Origin: Acidobacteria bacterium Mor1
GTDB taxonomy: Bacteria; Acidobacteriota; Polarisedimenticolia; Polarisedimenticolales; Polarisedimenticolaceae
DNA length: 34,182 nt
Direction: 5' to 3'
Assembly: GCA_001664505.1 (NCBI GenBank)
Contig: CP011806.1
Location: 1,861,317-1,895,498 of the forward strand
Positions 1,133 to 14,511 of this stretch are shown piece after piece (the first letter of the stretch is position 1; every line of letters starts with the position of its first letter). Position numbers and translations under genes: made by a program. The notes below the pieces were generated by a model. It ran no database searches. It had not been told where the DNA came from and saw only the letters and a list, made by a program, of their open reading frames with translations.

Positions 1133-1302
1133 ATCTAGGGTTTCGTCGTGCCGGGTTGCGAAGCGTTACGGCCTGACGCCGGAAAATCGCAACGAGTTCG
1201 TTTTTTCCTTCCGCCTGCCGTTTTCTCGCCCTGAACTTGCCGCTTTTGCCTTCCGATTCCGTGTCCCATGTCGATCGGCAAGCACGACGATCAGCGAGCA
1301 CA

Positions 1303-1355
1303 GCAAGCAAATACCCCGTTTCCACGGGGCATCCTGGCCGGCCGGGCCTGCTTGT
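1303..1355 (+). promoter_or_regulatory. Three-way-junction-like 5' leader abutting the Shine-Dalgarno
   Basis: GCAAGCA (1303-1309) pairs with TGCTTGT (1349-1355, one G-U), enclosing two hairpins: CCCCGT/ACGGGG (1314-1319 with 1324-1329, TTCC loop) and CCTGG/CCGGG (1333-1337 with 1342-1346, CCGG loop). The outer helix ends one base before the GGAGG (1356-1360) of the metalloprotease gene, so its formation or opening could affect ribosome access. This is a hand-drawn fold without covariation support. Confidence 0.4.
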
Positions 1356-1365
1356 GGAGGACACG

Positions 1366-4300
1366 ATGAACAACAACAGACCGATCGCGACAAGTTCGAT
1401 CGCGCCAGGATCGATCGCGCCAGGATCGGCTCCGGTGCGGACCTTGCTGACCTGCCTGGTGTGGCTGGCCTGCCTGGTTGCCGCCGCACCGGCGCTGGCT
1501 CAGGTCGACCCCGAGCTCAGCCTTTCCCGAAACCCCGGGGATGACGCGGTCCAGCTCAGCTGGACCGGGGGCGCTCCGACCTTTGAGGTCTATCGCTCCT
1601 CGGATGCTTCCGACGTGATCACCCCCGGCAATCGTCTCGGCGAGGTCCAGGGCTACGGATTCAATGACCAGCCCCCCGTCGGCGAAATCTTCTTCTATCG
1701 AATTCAATCCCGCTCGGACTGCCTGCGCCCGATCGGCGACACCGCCGCCCGGCAGTCCCAGCCGGCTCAGAACTTCGGCAACGACCCATCCCTCTTCGCG
1801 GGAGACGACGGCAAGGATCGGACCTACCTGAAGTTCTCGCTTGACGGGATCCCGGCCGACGCCATCGTCGACAAGGCCACCCTGATCCTGCAGCAGACGT
1901 CCCTCACTCAGGGGAACCCGTTCGAGATCTACAGTGCGGTGGAAGCCTGGGCCGAGGACGCCCTGACCTGGAACGACCAGCCGAATCTGGGCTCTCTCTA
2001 CGCCGTCGAGAGTCAGGCGGCAGGGAGCGGAGCGCGGAGCTGGGATGTGGCCGGACTGGTCGATGACTGGCTGTCGGGATCGACGCCGAACCACGGATTG
2101 GTGGTAATCGCCAACGGTAACCTGGCGGAGTACACCTCCCGCGAAACCGACGAGACCTCGGTGCCGCGGCTCTGCGTGCAGTGGCGGGACCCGGTCGAGG
2201 ACGCCCTGCTCAACCTGGAACAACAGTCTCCCGAAGGGGTCCGCTCCCGCTTCGGCGCAGCCACGGTCGAAACCCTCGACGTGCAGGTACCGGCCAGCTC
2301 CGGCGACCCGGTGGATGCCGCCCTTCAGTACCTTCAGGACAACCGCATCCTGTTCGGCATCGAGAGCGCCTGGGTCGATCTGTTCCTCGACCGCATCCGC
2401 GAGTGGGACGGCATGACCGCCGTGGCGTTCGGCCGCAGGGTCCAGAACATTCCCGTGCTGGACGAGACCCTGATCGTCTTCGTCGCCGACGGCACGGTCT
2501 GGGGTTCCTCGAGCCGGCTGCGCGACGACCGGACCTTCGAGGGGCAGGTGCGGATCACCCCCGAACAGGCGCGGCAGTTCGCGCTCAACGAGCTCTCGGG
2601 GGAATACCCCAACGTGCGCACTCTCGGGGCGCCGCGACCCTACTGGGTTCCGCTCAACGAAGACGATCCGGAGCCCGAGGTCGCCTTCTGGGTGCCGGTC
2701 TCCGGCCTTTCGACCAACGGTGATCTGCCGCTCAACGGGGCGGCCTTCATCGATGCCGAGAGCGGAGCGTTGCTGCGGATGGTCGACATGGTCCACGAGG
2801 CGGCCGAGAACTTCCAGGTGCGCGACGCCGAGAACGAATCCAGCGACACCTGCTGGCTCTTCCCCTGGGAGAACAAGCCGATCTGGTTCGACGAGGACGG
2901 TCCGCTGCCGGCCTACCCGGGGCAGCCGGCCGACCTGTTCGGCGACGGCCAGCGGGTCGCCGACGGGATCGACGACGTCTACGACCACTTCGTCGACAAC
3001 TTCGGCTGGCGCGGCATGAGTGGCCGGGGTGAGGGGTTCCGCGCCTACGTGCATTGGAACGACGTCGAGTTCAACAACGCCATGTACACCTCGTTCTGCA
3101 ACATCATGAGCTTCGGCGACGGCTGGACCGGGCTGGATATCATCGGCCACGAGTTCGGGCACGGCCTGGCGTTTCATGCGATCCCGCTGTTCTGGGAAGG
3201 CCAGCCCGCGGCCATCGGCGAGCACATCGGTGACTTCTTCGGCTCCCAGCTCGACGGCAACTGGCAGCTGGCCGAGGACCGCGCCGATGCCGACGCCCGC
3301 ACGATCCGGGACATGTCCAATCCCCCGCTGTTCAACGACTGCGAGGGCATGCCCGACCCGGACCACATGGATCTCGTCCGGCCGATGAGCTGCGACAAGG
3401 GTGGCGTGCACGCCATCAACGGCGTGCTGAACAAGGCGGCTTACCTGCTGACCGACGGAGACGCTCACCGGGGCATCGTGACCAGCGGCATCGGGCGTTT
3501 CAAGGCCGGCCAGCTGATCTTCTCGGTCATCGTCTCCCACACCCACCCCTGGTCCAACCTGCGGATGTTCGGCGAGGAGGCGGTGCGCGAAGCCCAGCGA
3601 TTCCTGCGTGACGGACTCCACGGGTTCACGGTGAACGACGTCTGCGACGTGATCAACGCCTATGCGGCAGTCGGCATCGGCGATCCGGACACCGATTGTG
3701 ACGGCGTGCCCAACGCCCCGGCCGATGACGGCGACGGAGACGGGATCCGCGACGGGTTGGACAACTGCCCCAACGTCAGCAACCGCACTCAGTTCGACCT
3801 CAACGGCGACGGCGAGGGAGATGCCTGCGACGGTGATGACGACGGAGACGGTGTACCCGACGACACCGACAACTGCCGCCGGCGAATCAACCCGGGGCAG
3901 GAGGACACCGACGGCGACGGAATCGGCAACGTCTGCGACGACGACGACCGGGATCGGGTGCTCGATCTCGACGACAACTGCCCGACCTCTTACAACCCGG
4001 ACCAGCGGGATTCCGACGGGGACGGCATGGGCGATGCCTGTGACGAGGATCCGGACAATGACGGAATCTTCCCGGCGGACAACTGCCCGCTGCACTTCAA
4101 CCCGTCCCAGAGCAACAGTGACGGTGACACCCTCGGGAACGCCTGCGACAACTGCCCCTTCGACACCAACGAGGACCAGGCGGACATGGACCGGGATGGC
4201 GAAGGGGATGAGTGCGACAACGACCGGGACGGCGACGGCGTGCCCAACGGCAGCGACAACTGTCCCGACGTGATCAACGCCGCCCAGTTCGACAACGACG

Positions 4301-4743
4301 GCGACGGTGTGGGGACCGCCTGTGACTCCGACGAGATGGCCTTCTTCAGCGGCCTCGCCGGGGCCCAGCAGCTGGCGCTGTTTCTCCAACACAACGACAT
4401 CGCCGAAGTCATGCGGCTTCGCGTCGAGCCCTGCAGCGTGTTGGACTGTCCCGGACGGCTGGGGCCGAATTTCAACACCAGCGTCACCCTGAGCGCCTTG
4501 AATCACGACTACGCGATGCGCATCGTCGACGATCGCGGCTTCGCCATCGCCGACGGGCTCTCCTTCCAGGGAGCCCCGGTGACCATGACGTTCAGCGTCG
4601 ATCACGAGTACTTCTACCAGGACGGCATCAGCGGGCTGGACTACGTCGGTCGCGAGTACTTCCTTGAGCTGATCGCCCCGCCGGGCAGCCAGGACGGGCA
4701 GATCCTCGAAGGGTTCATCGAGGTGAACAGCTCCCTGGATTGA
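1366..4743 (+). CDS. Secreted M4 (thermolysin-family) metalloprotease with DNRLRE-like and thrombospondin type-3 domains
   Basis: This is an exported zinc endopeptidase of 1125 residues. The start is ATG 1366, preceded by GGAGG at 1356-1360; the frame is open further upstream but lacks a ribosome site there. A signal peptide ends near ALAQ (about residue 43). A short FN3-like segment follows, then a DNRLRE-like domain (about 125-275: [27 protein letters not shown]). A prodomain-like FTP/PepSY region precedes the peptidase. Catalytic residues match thermolysin in spacing: H595-E596-x-x-H599, E619 as third zinc ligand 24 residues after H595, D623, and H682 in GGVH. Asp-rich TSP3 repeats (775-990; DxDGDGxxD and DNCP motifs) bind calcium in other proteins. 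The C-terminal ~135 residues are unassigned. It is probably surface-attached or released to degrade external protein. Confidence 0.93.
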
Positions 4744-6255: not shown

Positions 6256-6810
6256 CTATTCGACCGTGGCCGCGATCATGATCTCGACCTCGTTGGCGAT
6301 CGAGCTGCGGTTGGACGGGTCGTGGGTCGGACCACCCAGGTTGAAGGCGGTGCGGTCCAGGGTCGCGCTGCCTTCGATCTTCAGCGGCGCGGTGCTGACC
6401 ACATCGAACTTCGCGGGCACGTCCTTGGTCACACCCATGAAGGTCACGGCGGCGGTCGCCTCGTAGCTGTTGTCCCCCACCTTCTTGACCCGGTCGATCT
6501 TGACCGTCGCGGTCGGCAGCTTGACCACGTTGAAGAAGTCAGGCTGGCGCAGGTGGTCTGCAAGCTTCGACGAGTTTTCCCAAACAGAGGCCATGTCGAT
6601 CTCGAAGGTCACGCTGCCCTTGGTCAGATCTCCCTCGGGAATCGAAACGTCGGTGAAGTGCCACTTCTCGAACTTGCCGTGGGCGCTGTAGCGCTCGTTG
6701 TGGGCCTTGAACTCGAGACTGCCCGGGGCTTCGCCGGCACCGGCAGCCACCGAGGCCAGAAGAGCCACCAGCGCGGCGGTCATCGTCATCGTTCTACGCG
6801 AGAGTTTCAT
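6256..6810 (-). CDS. YceI family periplasmic protein
   Basis: The product has about 184 residues: a signal peptide (MKLSRR then a hydrophobic stretch ending near VAAGAGEAP) and one YceI domain, a lipocalin-like barrel that binds isoprenoid lipids in characterised members. Typical features are KWHFTDVSIPEGDL, HLRQPDFFNV (the family's HLxSxDFFD motif), the FMGVTKDV segment and the NR-type ending. I chose the ATG at 6810 because AGGAG lies six bases before it; the in-frame ATG at 6816 abuts that AGGAG and is too close to use. The next gene on the same strand also has a YceI-like domain, so the pair may act on the same class of ligand. Confidence 0.9.
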   Translation of the reverse strand: MKLSRRTMTMTAALVALLASVAAGAGEAPGSLEFKAHNERYSAHGKFEKWHFTDVSIPEGDLTKGSVTFEIDMASVWENSSKLADHLRQPDFFNVVKLPTATVKIDRVKKVGDNSYEATAAVTFMGVTKDVPAKFDVVSTAPLKIEGSATLDRTAFNLGGPTHDPSNRSSIANEVEIMIAATVE

Positions 6811-6856
6811 GTCCATCTCCTGAGTGGTAACGGGGATCCGGAAAACTGCGACCGCC

Positions 6857-8302
6857 CTACGAATCGGGCAGCATCAAGACGTCCAGGTGAAACTGCAGTG
6901 TGTCATTGGCCGGAGCCGGGCCATCGGGGCCTTCGACTCCGAAGGGCTCCATCAGGCGGATCTCGAAGCCGGCCTGGACATGGAGCCGCGGTTTGCCGTC
7001 GTCACCGACGATCGGCTCGAGCTGAGCCGCGACATCGAGCGGAATCTCCTGGCCCATCATCGTGAACGTACCCTTGGCGGCAACCCGGGAGAGGTTGCCG
7101 AAGCGCAGCGGCTCTTCCGGCGCGCTCACCTCCGCCAGCTCGAAGCGGGCGTCGGGGAAGCGCTTGACCAGGATCATCTTACCGTGGATCGCGGCATCGA
7201 GGGTTTGCTCGCCCATGGTCACCGACGAGGTGTCCGTCTCGATCCAACCCTTGGCTCCCTGGAGGGAATCGGGGCTCTCGAGCGCCAGTGCACCATCGAC
7301 CTGACCGACCTCCCCGGTGTAGCGGTCGAGAGGAGCCGGGAAGCGGAAGACCAGCCGCGGCGCGGCGCCCGGCTCCGACGGCTCGACTCGCCAGCGAGCC
7401 GGCAACTCCAGGTTTGCCGCCGCGGCGGAAGAGCCCTGGGCGCGCTCGGGAAGCGGCAACCCCGCCTGCTCCCAGCTGACCTCGGCCACCGTCGCCGGCA
7501 CCGGGTCGAAGCCATCGCCGCGGGTCGAACCGGTGATCTGGGCCATGACCTCGTTTTCGAGCTGCCGCGCGGCCGCAGCGAACACTCTGTCCCGTTCGTC
7601 CCAGGAACCGGTATGGGGGGTGTCCTCCCCGACGAATACCGGCTCGATGCAGTTGAACTGCGAGAAGAGCGCCGTCGAGACCCACAGCCGACCGGCCTCG
7701 TCGAGGTAGGGGTGGAAATCCATGTAGAACGCCCGGTCCGCGGCGCCGAGTTCGATGGACTCACGCTCGCTGAACCGTTGGAACCCGGCGAGGATCGCGG
7801 CGCGAGCTTCAGCCGTGAAGCTGTCGGCGTCCAGGCCCTCGGGCAAGTGGCCGCTCAACCCGGTGATCTTGATCGGCGCGCTGACCTGGGCGCGGCCCAG
7901 CGACGCCACCGCGACATTCTTCGCGGTGTACCCACCCGGTTGAGGCGGCACCGCCCGCTGGGTGCGCACGAAATGCGCGACCTTTCCGGTGTCGACGTAG
8001 CGTCCCTGGAATACGGCACGTCCGCGGGCGCTCTGGTAGACGAGCAGCGGCGTGAGATGCACCTCGGCAGGTGCCTGCTCCGCCGTGTCGACCACTCGTA
8101 GCCGCAGGCCGAGTTCACCCGCCAGGGACTCGAGTGCGGGCCGGTGGGTCGTCTCGACGCCGTCGATGATCGCGCCCTCGGCGCTGGAGCGGACGAAGAG
8201 GATCAGCTCCTCGTGGGTCGTCGCTGCGCCGGCGGCGAAGCCCGGCGGCACGGCAGACAAGACGCAAACGAGAAGCAAACAGGCTGTGCGAAGTACATGC
8301 AT
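6857..8302 (-). CDS. Exported protein with C-terminal YceI-like domain
   Basis: This protein of about 481 residues starts at ATG 8302 (MHVLRTACLLLVC...), giving a clean signal peptide ending near GFAAGAA. The frame is open back to 8371, but that would run through the terminator at 8349-8381. Residues ~30-300 form an unrecognised region with ENEVMAQITGS and FYMDFHPYLDEAG. The last ~180 residues resemble YceI: TGEVGQVDGALALESPDS, KRFPDARFELAEVS, GTFTMMGQEIPLDV. It therefore looks like a YceI barrel with a large N-terminal extension. No strong Shine-Dalgarno precedes 8302. The single-domain yceI-type gene lies 46 bases downstream on the same strand, suggesting an operon. The biological role is unknown; periplasmic ligand binding is an inference. 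Confidence 0.8.
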   Translation of the reverse strand: MHVLRTACLLLVCVLSAVPPGFAAGAATTHEELILFVRSSAEGAIIDGVETTHRPALESLAGELGLRLRVVDTAEQAPAEVHLTPLLVYQSARGRAVFQGRYVDTGKVAHFVRTQRAVPPQPGGYTAKNVAVASLGRAQVSAPIKITGLSGHLPEGLDADSFTAEARAAILAGFQRFSERESIELGAADRAFYMDFHPYLDEAGRLWVSTALFSQFNCIEPVFVGEDTPHTGSWDERDRVFAAAARQLENEVMAQITGSTRGDGFDPVPATVAEVSWEQAGLPLPERAQGSSAAAANLELPARWRVEPSEPGAAPRLVFRFPAPLDRYTGEVGQVDGALALESPDSLQGAKGWIETDTSSVTMGEQTLDAAIHGKMILVKRFPDARFELAEVSAPEEPLRFGNLSRVAAKGTFTMMGQEIPLDVAAQLEPIVGDDGKPRLHVQAGFEIRLMEPFGVEGPDGPAPANDTLQFHLDVLMLPDS

Positions 8303-8348
8303 CACGGCACCATTCTGGCACCGGGCCTCCCACCTCGCACATGCAACG

Positions 8349-8381
8349 AAAAAGGCCGGGGAGCGGAACACTCCCCGGCCT
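8349..8381 (-). terminator. Intrinsic terminator of the RHS gene
   Basis: Read on the minus strand, an 11-base-pair stem (8371-8381 with 8353-8363) and a 7-base loop are followed by TTTTT (8353-8349). It lies 65 bases beyond the RHS stop codon and ends that transcript before the YceI-domain gene. Confidence 0.9.
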
Positions 8382-8445
8382 CGTTTGTGGTCGTTTCTCG
8401 GGCGAATCAGGGCCCGATGGTCGTCAGATCCGCGTTGCCGCTAGA

Positions 8446-9345
8446 TCAACACCACCAACCCCACCAGGGCCACCACCAGCCCCACCAGAGCCTCCAGCCC
8501 CACCAGGGCCAGGTCCACCAGCCCCAGGACCAGATCCACCAGTGACCCCAGATCCAGACGCTGAACCAACCCCAGCCCCAGAGCCACCAGTTCCAGCCGA
8601 ACAGCCAGGACCACCAGCCCCACCAGTGCCAGGGCCAGAACCAGCCCCAGCCGAACCAGGTGCCCCAACCGAAGGGGCCCCACCACCAGTGGTGTCCGCC
8701 GATCCAGCCCCAGTGCCACCAGGACCACCAGCCCCACCACCACCAGGGGTTCCAGCCGAACCAGCCCCACCAGGCGCCCCAGCCGGCCCAGTTCCACCAG
8801 CCCCAGGGCCACCAGCACTTGACCCAGCCCCACCAGTTCCACCAGAAGCCGAGTCCGCTCCAACCCCAGTAGCCGTGCCACCAGAAGGGAGACCAGGTCC
8901 ACCAGCCGTTCCAGTGATAGGGATGCCAGGCCCACCAGGTGTTCCAGAAAGGCCACCAGCCGCACCAGCCGAACCAACCGCTACCGGGCCACCAGCCGAC
9001 CCAGGCGTTCCAGCCCCACCATGGCCACCAGCCGTTGATCAGGTTCCAGCCCCAGACCGGAAGCCAGGTACACCAGCCGAAGGCACCCCAGTAGGGCCAT
9101 ATGCCCCACCAGCCGTACCACGGTGCCCAGGCTCGCCAGCCCCACCAGCGGAAGGGTGCGTACCACCAGGTGACCCAGGGCTTCCAGACCCACCAGGAGG
9201 CGAAGGGTCCGCCGAACCAGACCCAGGGGCGCCACTGCCACCAACCCCAGGGACCGCCGAACCACCAGCAGGTGCGCCAGGCCCACCAGCCCATGTTCCA
9301 GGCACCCGGGTGCCACCACCAGCCCTTGCCCCACCAGAACGGGTT
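8446..9345 (-). repeat. Low-complexity tract encoding the Trp-rich tail
   Basis: The plus strand here is a degenerate run of CCACCAG-like words (CCACCAGCCCCACCAG), so the coding strand is G-rich with many TGG codons. The tract is open in several frames because the words lack stops, producing long shadow frames (Pro-rich on plus, Leu-rich on minus). It is an imperfect repeat rather than a fixed-unit minisatellite. I count fifteen GCTGGTGG octamers on the coding strand, which arise where GGC, CGC or TGC precedes TGG TGG. Confidence 0.85.
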
Positions 9346-12300
9346 CATCCCGAACCAGTTGAGCGGACAGGGAAAGAACATCGGCACGTTGTAGGCGCTA
9401 CCCATCGGGCCGATCAGCTGCCCCGGGATGAACCGCTGCATGTGACGGCCGAAACGTGGCGCGTACTTGGCGCCGCGGTTCTCGTAGAGCCTCGTCTCCG
9501 GATCCCAGAACTGCCCCATGTAGAGGAACGGGTTGCCGATGATGCTCTCGTCGGCACCGGTCGGCGTGTTTCCGGGATCTTCGAAGCGCGGCGTGCCCTC
9601 GGCGTCGTAGGTGATGCGCTCGACGATGGAGCCACCGCCGTCGGTGACCATCACGATGCTGCCGCGGACGTCGTCGTGGACGTAGTAGAAGTCGCCGGTG
9701 ATCAGGCTCTCGACACCGACCAGTTCGTTCTGCGCGCCGTAGAAGAAGCGCATGTCGGGCACGCCGGCGCCGAGGTTGTACTGCTCGATCAGACGGTCGC
9801 CGTCGTACACGTAGCGCGTATCGACCCCGGTGTTCAGGTCCCGCTTGACCACCCGGCGGTTGAGGGCGTCGTAGGCGTACTGGGCGATCGTGCTGCCCGA
9901 AACCTCGACCTCCACCAGCCGGTTGAACACGTCGTAGATGTACGTACGGTTGTCTTCGGTAACCATGTTGCCGTTGGCGTCGTGGCCCAGGTTCTGGCCG
10001 TCAGCCACCGGCGTGTTGCCGTCGTCACCGAAATCATCGGGGATTCCGTCGTCAAGGGACGGGTTGGGATCCCCGTACTGGTTCATCACGTTGGGCGTGT
10101 TGGCGAAAGGCGTGCCGTTGATGATCCGGCTGAGCCAATTGCCCACGTCGTCCAGGGTGTACTGGATGCTGGTGGGCGACGCCGTGCCTACATCCCGCTC
10201 GTAGCCGATCAGCCGGTAGGCGCTGTCGTACTCGAAGGCGTCGAACACGCCGGGGTTGTGCAAATCCCGGGACTCACGGGTGATGTTGCCCATGGCATCC
10301 AGGGAGTAGTCGAACCCGGCCTGGACGGCGTTCCCGGGGTCGTAGTGCCGTACCGCCCGCACCCGCTTGAGTCCGTCGTAGCCGATGTTGTTGATGCTCA
10401 ACGGGTCGAGATAGGACTTGCGGGTCCCGTTGCCGTGGAACCGTTGGGCGATCCGGTCGGGGAAGATCCGGTCGTAGTTGACCGAGAAGCCGCTGATCGG
10501 ATCCTGGATCCCGAAGATGTAGCCGAAGGGGTCGGCATTCACCTGGGGCGTCGTACCGCTGGGGTAGAAGCTCTGGGTGCGGTTGCCGTTCCCGTCGTAC
10601 TGGTGGCTCTGGGCGTAGAGGATGCCTCCGTTGAACTGGGAGCTCTCCTCGCGGATCCGGTTGAGGGAGTCGTAGATGAACTCGACTTCGGTGAAACCCG
10701 CCGGGGAATCCTCGGTGGCCAGCACCAGACGGTTCATGCCGTCGTAGTCGAAGGTCTGTTCAACCGGACGAACGTCCGGCCCGGGAGAGACGGCGCGGAG
10801 GATCGGGCGGTCGGCGACGTCGTAGTCGATGACCACCTGACTTCCGTTGGGGTCCCGGACCTCGACGACGTTGTCGTTGGCGTCGTACTCGTACTCGACC
10901 ATCAGCCCGTCCGCCTGAATGTCGCGGATCTTGCGGCCCAGGGTGTCGTACTCGTAGGTCGTCGGGTTCCCGTTGGGGTCGATCTGTTGCTGGATCGCAC
11001 CGTCGAGGTTGTACTCGGTCATGTACACGATGTTGCCGACCACGGCACCGCCGCCGGTGCCGCCGGCACGCATCACCCGGTCGATGCGGATGCGTCGATC
11101 GGTTGCATCGTAGGCATAGTCGATGGTGTTGCCGAGCTGGTCGGTCATCTCGAGCACGTTGTCCCGGCTGTCGTAGCGCAGGGACTTCTCGAAGCCGAGG
11201 TTGTCCCGCACCAGCAGCAGCCGGTTCAGCCGGTCGTACTCCATCTGATCGACGAAGGTCTCGACGCCCGCCGGCCCCGTGGTGTTCTCCAGCCGCTCGA
11301 CGACGTTGTTGTTGGCGTCGTAGACGAACTGAGTGGCGTGTGTGCCGGCGTCGACCTCGAAGACACGGCCGGCACCGTCGTAGTTGTAGTCCGTGGATGC
11401 GCCGCCGTCGTTGCCGGTGACGGTGCGCTGGCTCTTGCGGTCGTACTCGGTGATGACCTCGATGACGTTGTCGCCATCGAAGGATTCGTTGAGCGGAAGA
11501 CCACTGTTGTCGAGGACGTGCTGCCCCAGGTTGACCACCCGGCCGACCTCGTCGTACTGGTAGTCGGCCCTGTAGACCGTGACGCCGAAATCGACGACGG
11601 TCACCCGCGCGATGGTCTCGTCGGAGTTGTAGCGGACCTCGAACTGCGAGCGGCCGGGCACCACGTCCGAACGGACCCGGCGATCCATGCCGTCGTACTC
11701 GAACAGGAACGGATTGGCGCGGCCGTCCTCGTAGGTCACGAGGTTGCCGTTGGCGTCGTAGTCGTAGCGCTGGACCGACGATCCCGGCGGGCCCGTCGAG
11801 GCGTCCCGGTCATCGTCGCCGCGGCGGAGCTGGTAGATCAGTCCCCGCTCGTCGTAGCGCATGGTCTGGAATACGCCCAGTCCGTTGGCCTGACTCTCGG
11901 GCAGCTCGACGGCGATGCGCCGCTCCATGGCGTCGTAGAGGTATTCGGTCCGGGCGAAGACGCCACCACCGATCTCCTGCTCCATGGCGGTCATGTTGCC
12001 CAGCAGGTCGTACTCGAACAGGACGTCGATGAATCCGCCGCTGTTGGACAGGTCGCCGAGATCCTGGATCCGGCGCTCGACGATCTCACCCCGGGCGTTG
12101 TAGATCGTCTCGGAGACGTAGCCGTTCAACGGAGGCTCGGTGGCCAGGTTGATCGAGCGGGGTGACGTACCACCCCGCCGAACCGAGACGATCTGACCGG
12201 CCTGGTTGAGCTCGAACACCGTGCGGGTGCCGTTGCCGTCGACCGAGGCGGTGAGATTGCCGGTTGGGTCGTACTCGAAGTCGTTGACGATCTGCGCCGC

Positions 12301-14511
12301 CGCGGGATTGAGTCCGTTGGCCCGGCGCGCGATCTCCGCCGCGTTGAGGAACGGCGCGGGATCGTCGTCCAGTACCTTCAGGGACAGGTAGCCGCCGGTC
12401 GCCGCGTTCAGGACACGTCCGTCGAGCGGTACCGGTGAGGGGTTTCCGTCCCCGTCGGGGTCGCTCTCGGGGTGGTAGCGATAGGTACTGACCACGTTCT
12501 CGGGGTCGATCTCGATTTCGAGCTGCCCGAGAGCGTTGTAGCGGTAGCGGGTCTCGATCGTTTGGAACGGCGCGCCCTCGATCGCCTGCTGGCGACCGCC
12601 GGGGAGCAGCGTGGCGTTGGGCTGACGCAGCAGGATCGGGTTGCCGAAGTTCTGCTGATCGGTGCCGTCGCCGTTGAGATCGCCCAGGAACAGCGGAACA
12701 CCGCCGAGGCTGATGTTCCAGTCGGCGACCTGATCATTGACGCCGTTAAGGTTGGGGTCCCCTTCCTGCCAGTCGAAGAAGTACTCGGTCGTCTGGCCGG
12801 CCGGGTCGATGATCACCCGCTGTTGGTTGTAGAGGGTCTCGTACTCGTAGTTGACGACCACGTCGGCGAGGCCGCCGCCGAAGCCGTCACCCCGCACCGG
12901 GTCGGCGACCCGGCGAACACCCAGCAGGTTGCCTCGCTGGAAGCGGTCCGGGTTCCCGGTGTCGTAGAGAAATTCGACGAAGTTGCCCATTGGGAACAGC
13001 GTCGAGAGCCGCTCGCCGGTTGGCTCGTAGTGGTGCTGGGTCTCGAAAAACGGTGGGTCGGTCGGACGGATGCCGATAGTCAGCACCCGCTCGACGGCGA
13101 CCTGCCCGTCAAGGGTGAACTCGTACTCAGTGGGTACGCCGTTGCGGTCGATCAACTGCAGTTGACGCGGACCACCCGGCTTGTTCAGGGCGTACTGATA
13201 GGTCCCGCCTGCGCCTCCGGCGCTGCCGAAGTCCTGCTCGAAGACCTCGTCGTCTGCGTTGTACTGGTTGACAAGGTAGGGGTTGGCGTCACCCGGAGCC
13301 GTGATCGAGACCAGGTTGTGGTCAAGACGCGAGTCGCCGGTGTTGTTGGTGTAGGTGAACCTGGTCGTGCGGCCCGACGGGAAGTCGTTGCCGGTCGAGG
13401 TGCCGGTGATGGCCGGGGTGGTGACCGTTTGGAGGTCCCCTTCGGCACCGTCGGCGGTACTGCCGTCGTAGTACGTGTAGCGCACCTGACGGCCGGCAAA
13501 GTCCTCGACCATCGCGAGACGGCCGGTGGCATCCCAGTAGTAGCTGATGGTGCGGCCGAGGGTGTCGACGACGTTACAGAGCAGCCCGTCCGGGTGGTAG
13601 ATGAAGGACAGGAAATTGCCGCTGCGGTCCCGGATCTCCAGCAGGCGGCCCTCGAGGGGGGTGCCGTCGAAGCTCTGGTAGCGGTACTCGGTGCCGTCTC
13701 GGTCTCGCAGGATAAAGTTCCCGCTGACCGGGTCCTGGCGGATCTTGTTGTAGATGCCGGCCTCTACCGGCTCCCACTGGGCGCCGACGTTGATGTAGTC
13801 ATCCTGGCGGCCGGTGCCGTCCAGATGGATCAACCCGCCGCCTCCGGAGATCAATCGCCGGTCGTAGTTGAAGGTCCAGTTGTAACCTTGCTGGCCGTCA
13901 TGGTTGATCTGGCTTCGGTAGAAACGGACATGGCGGAAGCTGATCCCGCGACCGGGGATCTCCATATCGGTCTGCTGCAGGAAGAACTCCCCCGTATGCA
14001 GGTAGATACCGCCGCCGGCCAGGTTGTTGACCTCGTTGGCCACGGCCGGGTTTCTCGGTGGCTCGATGCCCTGGATCTGCCCATCGACGTCGGGGCCGTT
14101 GGGGTTGATCGTGTCGAGCAGCGGCGCGGGGAGCGTTGCGCAGGGGTTCACGTTCGGACGGTTGCCACCGCCCGAATCGACCCCGAAAATGCTCTCGCTG
14201 ACCCCCTTGGTGCCGACGGCCAGGTATGTAAACACCTGACCGGGCGCAGGATCGGGCGACAGGTCGCTGAAGCTGTTGGTCGGTAGCCCGACCGCGAAAC
14301 AACTGCCGTAGTCGGCAGGCAGAGTGGCCACGGAACCGCGATAAATGTTGTAGCCGTCCACTCCGGGAATTGCGTCCCAGTCGAGATCGGTCTTCGACTG
14401 GAACTGCAGATTCTGCACCTCGGGGACGGCGCCGGAAGGGAGAGCAAACGCAGGAAGTGCCAGACACAGCACCCCCAGCGACAACATCCACAGACGGATG
14501 GTTCGCGTCAT
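8446..14511 (-). CDS. Secreted RHS/YD-repeat protein with a tryptophan-rich C-terminal tail
   Basis: This 2021-residue protein starts at ATG 14511 with AGGAGG four bases upstream (14516-14521). A signal peptide (to about residue 23, ALPAFA) and an FN3-like segment (VDGYNIYRG) lead to an RHS N-terminal region (GIYLHTGEFFLQQTDMEI, about 170-200). A long array of YD repeats follows (YDANGNLV, YDTLGRKI, YDGMNRLV). An RHS core-like region spans about 1605-1702 (YYVHDDVRGS, MGQFWDPETRLYENRGAKY). RHS shells normally end at a DPxG-type autocleavage motif and then a variable toxin. Here that point reads RFIPGQLIGPMG, with no DPxG. From N1723 on come 299 residues made mainly of Trp, Gly, Pro, Phe and Asn (about 127 Trp, no Asp or Glu, 3 Lys, 5 Arg). 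In this frame Phe is almost always TTC and Asn always AAC, as in the rest of the gene, supporting real translation. No immunity gene is recognisable downstream. Confidence 0.9.
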   Translation of the reverse strand: MTRTIRLWMLSLGVLCLALPAFALPSGAVPEVQNLQFQSKTDLDWDAIPGVDGYNIYRGSVATLPADYGSCFAVGLPTNSFSDLSPDPAPGQVFTYLAVGTKGVSESIFGVDSGGGNRPNVNPCATLPAPLLDTINPNGPDVDGQIQGIEPPRNPAVANEVNNLAGGGIYLHTGEFFLQQTDMEIPGRGISFRHVRFYRSQINHDGQQGYNWTFNYDRRLISGGGGLIHLDGTGRQDDYINVGAQWEPVEAGIYNKIRQDPVSGNFILRDRDGTEYRYQSFDGTPLEGRLLEIRDRSGNFLSFIYHPDGLLCNVVDTLGRTISYYWDATGRLAMVEDFAGRQVRYTYYDGSTADGAEGDLQTVTTPAITGTSTGNDFPSGRTTRFTYTNNTGDSRLDHNLVSITAPGDANPYLVNQYNADDEVFEQDFGSAGGAGGTYQYALNKPGGPRQLQLIDRNGVPTEYEFTLDGQVAVERVLTIGIRPTDPPFFETQHHYEPTGERLSTLFPMGNFVEFLYDTGNPDRFQRGNLLGVRRVADPVRGDGFGGGLADVVVNYEYETLYNQQRVIIDPAGQTTEYFFDWQEGDPNLNGVNDQVADWNISLGGVPLFLGDLNGDGTDQQNFGNPILLRQPNATLLPGGRQQAIEGAPFQTIETRYRYNALGQLEIEIDPENVVSTYRYHPESDPDGDGNPSPVPLDGRVLNAATGGYLSLKVLDDDPAPFLNAAEIARRANGLNPAAAQIVNDFEYDPTGNLTASVDGNGTRTVFELNQAGQIVSVRRGGTSPRSINLATEPPLNGYVSETIYNARGEIVERRIQDLGDLSNSGGFIDVLFEYDLLGNMTAMEQEIGGGVFARTEYLYDAMERRIAVELPESQANGLGVFQTMRYDERGLIYQLRRGDDDRDASTGPPGSSVQRYDYDANGNLVTYEDGRANPFLFEYDGMDRRVRSDVVPGRSQFEVRYNSDETIARVTVVDFGVTVYRADYQYDEVGRVVNLGQHVLDNSGLPLNESFDGDNVIEVITEYDRKSQRTVTGNDGGASTDYNYDGAGRVFEVDAGTHATQFVYDANNNVVERLENTTGPAGVETFVDQMEYDRLNRLLLVRDNLGFEKSLRYDSRDNVLEMTDQLGNTIDYAYDATDRRIRIDRVMRAGGTGGGAVVGNIVYMTEYNLDGAIQQQIDPNGNPTTYEYDTLGRKIRDIQADGLMVEYEYDANDNVVEVRDPNGSQVVIDYDVADRPILRAVSPGPDVRPVEQTFDYDGMNRLVLATEDSPAGFTEVEFIYDSLNRIREESSQFNGGILYAQSHQYDGNGNRTQSFYPSGTTPQVNADPFGYIFGIQDPISGFSVNYDRIFPDRIAQRFHGNGTRKSYLDPLSINNIGYDGLKRVRAVRHYDPGNAVQAGFDYSLDAMGNITRESRDLHNPGVFDAFEYDSAYRLIGYERDVGTASPTSIQYTLDDVGNWLSRIINGTPFANTPNVMNQYGDPNPSLDDGIPDDFGDDGNTPVADGQNLGHDANGNMVTEDNRTYIYDVFNRLVEVEVSGSTIAQYAYDALNRRVVKRDLNTGVDTRYVYDGDRLIEQYNLGAGVPDMRFFYGAQNELVGVESLITGDFYYVHDDVRGSIVMVTDGGGSIVERITYDAEGTPRFEDPGNTPTGADESIIGNPFLYMGQFWDPETRLYENRGAKYAPRFGRHMQRFIPGQLIGPMGSAYNVPMFFPCPLNWFGMNPFWWGKGWWWHPGAWNMGWWAWRTCWWFGGPWGWWQWRPWVWFGGPFASWWVWKPWVTWWYAPFRWWGWRAWAPWYGWWGIWPYWGAFGWCTWLPVWGWNLINGWWPWWGWNAWVGWWPGSGWFGWCGWWPFWNTWWAWHPYHWNGWWTWSPFWWHGYWGWSGLGFWWNWWGWVKCWWPWGWWNWAGWGAWWGWFGWNPWWWWGWWSWWHWGWIGGHHWWWGPFGWGTWFGWGWFWPWHWWGWWSWLFGWNWWLWGWGWFSVWIWGHWWIWSWGWWTWPWWGWRLWWGWWWPWWGWWC

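What the first reader, a model, noticed from the sequence alone, without database searches (positions are those of the whole stretch)
8470..9325. Fifteen copies of the Chi octamer GCTGGTGG in under 900 bases
Seen: the RHS coding strand has fifteen GCTGGTGG words in the tail region, all one orientation, created by GGC, CGC or TGC followed by TGG TGG. Known: this octamer is the E. coli RecBCD Chi site; Chi sequences differ between taxa. Inference: the density may simply follow from protein composition, but if this host uses a Chi-like word of this kind, the tract would be a recombination hot spot promoting tail exchange or expansion.
Basis: partly seen in the sequence, partly recalled or inferred. 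Interest (0 to 1): 0.5.

Follow-up and report, generated by a model that had tools for sequence, protein, structure and literature searches.

The report
Tryptophan-rich RHS tail, not Chi
The pile-up of E. coli-type Chi words is most likely a side effect of how a bizarre protein tail, over two-fifths tryptophan, is spelled in codons; the recombination reading finds no support, but the tail itself is a rare oddity.

Summary
In detail: 15 GCTGGTGG words lie at 8473-9323, all on the - strand and all in one codon phase, NGC TGG TGG. The Chi reading is not supported. The word occurs 804 times in the genome against 1442 for its reversed control and at 0.86 of a sixth-order Markov expectation in an 800-kb sample; its strand bias equals the control's. 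No RecC was found; two AddAB-like pairs were. Redrawing synonymous codons for the same protein gives 10.4 +/- 2.1 such words.

What is odd is the protein. The last 300 residues of a 2021-aa RHS/YD-repeat protein hold 127 Trp (42%) and no Asp or Glu; the 1721 before hold 10 Trp. Codon usage, stops in the rival Gly frame, acidic-residue avoidance and continuity with RHS homology support the Trp frame. No sister tail was found in 148 other relatives or in pattern scans whose listings were cut. Strain variation could not be tested. The tail's role is a guess: a sticky aromatic tip.

The parts
8446..14511 (-). RHS/YD-repeat ORF, 2021 aa, ATG start; N-terminal stretch looks like a Sec signal peptide (judged by eye, no predictor run)
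   Evidence: PF05593 RHS_repeat E 2e-38; TIGR01643 YD repeat over its cut-off
8449..9348 (-). Trp-rich tail, residues 1722-2021: 127 Trp, 51 Gly, 21 Pro, 16 Phe, 0 Asp, 0 Glu
8473..9323 (-). fifteen GCTGGTGG words, all in phase NGC TGG TGG
9349..10918 (-). C-terminal part of the RHS core, the stretch compared with relatives; homology runs in frame to about residue 1712 (window about 9375)
8352..8382 (-). terminator-like hairpin with T run just after the stop codon (consensus match; 2 sites found in the region against 0.9 in shuffles)
8341..12165 (+). antisense ORF, Pro-rich over the tail; judged not coding there (codon score -1.342)

Best explanation
The 15 octamers are codon by-products, not working Chi sites. 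The tract encodes the C-terminal 300 residues of an RHS/YD-repeat protein, 42% Trp. Trp has the single codon TGG, so each Trp-Trp pair after a residue whose codon ends in GC (Gly GGC, Cys TGC, Arg CGC) spells GCTGGTGG in phase. That much is shown from the sequence and its statistics. Inferred: the protein is exported, the tail takes the place of the usual variable RHS tip, and it acts as a sticky aromatic low-complexity segment that binds envelope, polysaccharide, lipid or itself (about 0.35 on its own). The confidence given is for the by-product part.
For: All 15 words are in the Trp phase. There are 40 Trp-Trp pairs. Redrawing synonymous codons gives 10.4 +/- 2.1 words. The Trp frame is likely the coding one: codon score 0.585 bits per codon against 0.584 for the same gene's core, mean 0.542 for 429 gene chunks, -0.875 in the Gly frame with 2 stops and -1.342 in the open antisense Pro frame; third positions such as TTC 16 of 16, AAC 11 of 11, ACC 7 of 7, GTC 7 of 7; Asp+Glu 0 against 11.6 expected, stricter null P 6e-4; RHS homology in frame to about residue 1712, first Trp of the tail at 1719; terminator-like hairpin after the stop. 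No genome-wide excess of the octamer at high Markov order.
Against: A mild excess of octamers over the protein remains (2.1% of synonymous draws, 0.5% of codon shuffles reach 15). At Markov orders 1, 2, 4 and 5 the octamer is above expectation (2.66, 1.55, 1.26, 1.15), and it ranks 10th of 168 anagrams. Codon score alone does not exclude sense frame +2 (0.392, 1 stop) or one antisense frame (0.571, 5 stops). In L139 a Trp-rich frame is an off-frame reading of a Gly/Pro-rich open frame whose own third-position GC is low (0.54), so low GC3 does not by itself disprove a Gly-rich frame. Absence of stops among the tail's non-Trp codons is uninformative (29% of shuffles have none). Expression and export are not shown.
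Confidence: 0.9

Rival explanations
1. The tract is a Chi-type recombination hot spot: the host's AddAB-like enzymes read GCTGGTGG or a near variant, and the one-way array promotes tail exchange or expansion.
For: The exact E. coli octamer, 15 times in one orientation; mild excess over synonymous expectation; excess at low Markov orders and against anagrams; AddAB-like enzymes exist in the genome.
Against: No excess at order 6 (o/e 0.86) or order 3 (0.85); 804 copies against 1442 of the reversed control; strand bias like the control; no RecC. The AddAB words tabulated in PMC5959072 (passages) are different words and do not pile up in the tail.
Confidence: 0.03
2. The tail is a neutral or slippage-born expansion of 9-base GGCTGGTGG-like units that happens to stay open in the Trp frame and has no selected function; the octamers are relics of the unit.
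For: Weak 9-, 18-, 27-, 36- and 45-base units; Trp autocorrelation positive at 3, 6 and 18 residues (z 2.6, 2.0, 2.3); match at DNA lag 9 z 2.1; an RHS paralogue (L052) and relatives (L329, L334) have repetitive tails.
Against: Long internal repeats are not above shuffles (4 against mean 3.6); other lags that are multiples of 9 have z only 0.9 to 1.5; Asp and Glu are absent; Trp is the most expensive amino acid to make (passages of PMC7699789).
Confidence: 0.3
3. The Trp frame is an off-frame reading: the tail once was, or by a frameshift still is, a Gly/Ala/Pro-rich low-complexity segment read one base on.
For: The Gly frame reads as a plausible Gly-rich low-complexity sequence; L139 shows a Trp-rich frame produced that way.
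Against: The Gly frame has 2 stops within the tail, near 9346 and 9040; its codon score is -0.875; Asp/Glu avoidance is a property of the Trp frame; the Trp frame continues the RHS core without a break.
Confidence: 0.06

Closest known systems
RHS/YD-repeat proteins with variable C-terminal tips (Rhs polymorphic toxins)
   Same: RHS/YD repeats followed by a C-terminal segment that differs between paralogues and relatives.
   Different: No domain hit in the tail, no DPxG motif after residue 1327, terminator then YceI-domain genes in place of a recognised immunity gene.
E. coli Chi site (GCTGGTGG, RecBCD)
   Same: The exact octamer in one orientation.
   Different: No genome-wide excess at high Markov order, no strand bias beyond the control, no RecC.
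W-rich low-complexity domains (class in PMC11132505, passages seen)
   Same: A long stretch in which Trp is the commonest residue. The survey calls this class rare in all domains of life.
   Different: 300 residues at 42% Trp fused to an RHS core; I did not see whether any surveyed example resembles it.

Membership tests
Chi site of RecBCD/AddAB | exact cognate octamer present | tested here: met
   15 copies of the E. coli word; whether it is the cognate word of this host is not known
Chi site of RecBCD/AddAB | genome-wide over-representation | tested here: not met
   804 against 1442 reversed control; o/e 0.86 at order 6, 2.66 to 0.85 at orders 1-5
Chi site of RecBCD/AddAB | orientation bias beyond composition (not universal among Chi words according to PMC5959072) | tested here: not met
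   62:41 for 103 of 108 sampled words against 108:74 for the control
Chi site of RecBCD/AddAB | cognate RecBCD enzyme | tested here: not met
   PF04257 absent, E. coli control rings; two AddAB-like pairs instead, below NCBIfam cut-offs but over the PF12705 cut-off
Chi site of RecBCD/AddAB | stimulates recombination | not testable with these tools
   needs an enzyme or genetic assay
Rhs polymorphic toxin | RHS/YD repeats | tested here: met
   PF05593, TIGR01643 over cut-off
Rhs polymorphic toxin | DPxG-type boundary motif before the tip (motif recalled) | tested here: not met
   last DPxG is at residue 1327, 395 residues before the tail
Rhs polymorphic toxin | toxin domain in the tip | tested here: not met
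   no Pfam or NCBIfam match in the tail; absence of a match is weak evidence
Rhs polymorphic toxin | adjacent immunity gene (PMC3482391, passage) | tested here: inconclusive
   terminator-like site then a YceI-domain gene on the same strand; ORFs under 100 aa were not listed
W-rich low-complexity domain | Trp is the dominant residue over a long segment | tested here: met
   127 of 300; the survey's exact threshold was neither read nor run

The most novel reading that the evidence does not exclude
The tail is a selected, exported aromatic domain of a new kind: a 300-residue Trp/Gly polymer without acidic residues, used as an adhesive, membrane-interface or self-assembling tip on an RHS shell in place of a toxin. 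It would show that Trp-dominated low-complexity domains can be useful, against the published suggestion that they are limited by selection or lack benefit.
Probability: 0.3. Interest if true: 0.75.

Novelty: new variant of a known kind. Interest (0 to 1): 0.42.

Why it matters
As a Chi array it would matter little. As a protein it is an outlier: the most Trp in any 100-residue window tested among 287 filtered ORFs of 300 aa or more from the own-genome sample is 11, while the tail averages 42 per 100. [quoted passage not shown] An expressed, conserved example would make it testable what such a domain can do and how a cell bears its cost.

Tried and rejected
Chi hot spot: rejected on word counts, strand bias and absent RecC. 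Other Chi words (GCTGGCGC, AGCGG, GCGCGTG, GAAGCGG): 0, 3, 0 and 0 copies in the tail on both strands, so no pile-up. Toxin tip: no boundary motif, no recognised domain, no recognised immunity gene.

Search for sister tails. By protein: 1 of 149 genomes, the own one. In genome contigs 29 stretches matched a peptide pattern and none was confirmed by tblastn. Two codon patterns over 396 phylum genomes matched in 129 and 118 genomes; among the places listed, only the window's genome shows a compact cluster that is not a simple TGG-type repeat (4 of 4 and 6 of 6 matches inside the tail), but both place lists were cut. A looser pattern in 12 genomes gave 10 of 16 own-genome matches in the tail. One other genome with a high count was looked at; its five matches lie in four places, two of them overlapping. 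A six-frame scan of 321 loci and the window gave 69 frames with 12 or more Trp in 60; the best that is not the tail itself is L139 with 26 of 60, which is an off-frame reading of a Gly/Pro-rich open frame. An own-genome stretch in L022 (19 of 60) is a short-unit repeat open in all three sense frames. The other frames were not examined one by one. A scan of 43 later loci gave only the tail. So absence elsewhere is not shown.

RHS tails in relatives: 24 of 60 genomes, own included, have a core match. I took the 30 loci of that call; 29 gave an alignment, two of them the own genome's. None of the other 27 is Trp-rich (at most 12 Trp after the match), but 12 were cut by the end of the locus.

Structure: AlphaFold without an alignment gave mean pLDDT 47 and pTM 0.24; a C-terminal helix (pLDDT about 70-83) appears in the best of five models and I draw nothing from it. 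No fold search was made.

Literature: listings and abstract starts only; passages of four papers. None that I saw describes a Trp-dominated RHS tail; one search listed 25 of 103 papers.

Full report
Observation. The window has 18 GCTGGTGG words, 15 of them at 8473-9323 on the - strand. That strand codes for ORF 8446-14511, 2021 aa. All 15 sit in one codon phase, NGC TGG TGG, with 12 GGC, 2 TGC and 1 CGC. At the genome rate 0.06 words are expected per 900 bases of strand, and the densest 900 bases in 80 sampled strands hold 3.

Is it Chi? In the 5.985-Mb contig the word occurs 406 + 398 times, against 707 + 735 for the word read backwards. In 800 kb sampled evenly (40 stretches of 20 kb) 108 copies are seen against 125.7 from a sixth-order Markov model (0.86); orders 1 to 5 give ratios of 2.66, 1.55, 0.85, 1.26 and 1.15. 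By z at order 6 the word ranks 39325 of 41273 octamers; among its 168 anagrams it ranks 10th, with 108 copies against a mean of 50. So it is a fairly common word for its base make-up, but not more than its sub-words predict. With chromosome arms set by the sign of GC skew in the sample, leading:lagging is 62:41 for the word (103 of 108 copies; two stretches near the switch points left out) and 108:74 for the control. RecC (PF04257) is absent, while E. coli, one of 14 controls, rings. PF12705 marks two neighbouring pairs of large ORFs near 5.02 and 5.40 Mb, all four over its cut-off. By Pfam and NCBIfam each pair looks like AddA plus AddB; the NCBIfam scores are below the curated cut-offs. Chi words differ between taxa, and the AddAB/RexAB words tabulated in PMC5959072 are other words (passages) that do not pile up in the tail. 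A Chi role for this word here is unsupported, though only an enzyme assay could exclude it.

Why the words are there. The last 300 residues hold 127 Trp, 51 Gly, 21 Pro, 16 Phe and no Asp or Glu; the 1721 before them hold 10 Trp. There are 40 Trp-Trp pairs. Keeping the protein and redrawing synonymous codons at genome usage gives 10.4 +/- 2.1 octamers, 15 or more in 2.1% of 5000 draws; shuffling codon order gives 8.25 +/- 2.37, 15 or more in 0.5%. Most of the cluster is explained and a mild excess is left.

Is the Trp frame the true one? Synonymous codon scores in bits per codon: Trp frame 0.585, the same gene's core 0.584, 429 gene chunks mean 0.542. The Gly frame scores -0.875 with 2 stops; the antisense Pro frame, which is open, -1.342. 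Sense +2 scores 0.392 (1 stop) and one antisense frame 0.571 (5 stops), so the score alone does not exclude those two. The gene set was filtered for GC3 > GC1 > GC2 (287 ORFs); with an unfiltered 303 the three figures are 0.572, -0.572 and -0.613. Asp+Glu number 0 against 11.6 expected from shuffled base positions (0 of 20,000 shuffles); a stricter null from codons with C or T in the middle gives P 6e-4. Lack of stops among non-Trp codons says little (29% of shuffles). Homology to the RHS core in relatives runs in frame to query position 515 of 537, about residue 1712, and the first Trp of the tail is residue 1719. A terminator-like hairpin follows the stop. A warning: in L139, another organism, a Trp-rich frame is an off-frame reading of a Gly/Pro-rich open frame with low third-position GC. 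There the Gly-rich frame has no stop; here it has two.

Anatomy. Trp rises from 8-10 per 25 residues in the first 175 residues to 15 in the last 25. Trp avoids lags 1 and 4 and favours 3, 6 and 18 (z -3.1, -2.6, 2.6, 2.0, 2.3), in line with weak 9-base units (lag-9 z 2.1). Long internal repeats are not above shuffles (4 against mean 3.6). The tail is basic (8 Lys+Arg, computed pI 9.7) and G+T-rich on the coding strand (400 G, 212 T, 219 C, 69 A). AlphaFold without an alignment was uninformative (mean pLDDT 47, pTM 0.24).

Context. The genome has three more matches to the RHS core. One (L052) ends in six copies of a unit of about 40 residues (counted by eye); another (L051) in an unrelated tail without obvious repeats. 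In relatives, 24 of 60 genomes, own included, have a core match; of 27 foreign loci aligned none shows a Trp-rich tail, 12 of them cut short; L329 and L334 carry short Lys/Ala/Gly repeats. Variable and sometimes repetitive tails therefore occur in this group, and the Trp tail is an extreme case. It lacks the usual signs of an Rhs toxin: no recognised domain, no DPxG after residue 1327, and YceI-domain genes next door.

Known things. A survey of low-complexity domains calls W-rich ones rare in all domains of life and suggests they are limited by selection or lack benefit (PMC11132505, passages). Trp is described as the most expensive amino acid (PMC7699789, passages). No paper seen or 69 describes a Trp-dominated RHS tail; I saw listings, abstract starts and a few passages.

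Limits. No same-genus genome is listed among the 396, so strain variation is untested. Host name, expression and export are not shown; the signal peptide is judged by eye. The role proposed for the tail is an inference at about one in three.

Noticed in passing
L052 580-3894 (-), own genome near 4.3526 Mb: RHS paralogue whose C-terminal tail is six copies of a unit of about 40 residues with the motif GGDYNSSRSNRTHTP.
   Followed up: partly
L334 and L329: RHS homologues in relatives with tails made of short Lys/Ala/Gly repeats such as KFKAGSELADKVKSA.
   Followed up: no
L356 and L357 (own genome, 5.017-5.027 and 5.398-5.409 Mb): Two separate AddAB-like gene pairs in one genome.
   Followed up: partly
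window 6256-8302 (-): Two neighbouring genes with YceI domains downstream of the RHS gene.
   Followed up: no
window 1237-4743 (+): ORF combining CBM96, M4 metallopeptidase and thrombospondin type 3 repeats.
   Followed up: no
L022 12771-13313 (-), own genome near 3.713 Mb: Short-unit Gly-rich repeat open in all three sense frames, reading WGWGWG in one of them.
   Followed up: partly
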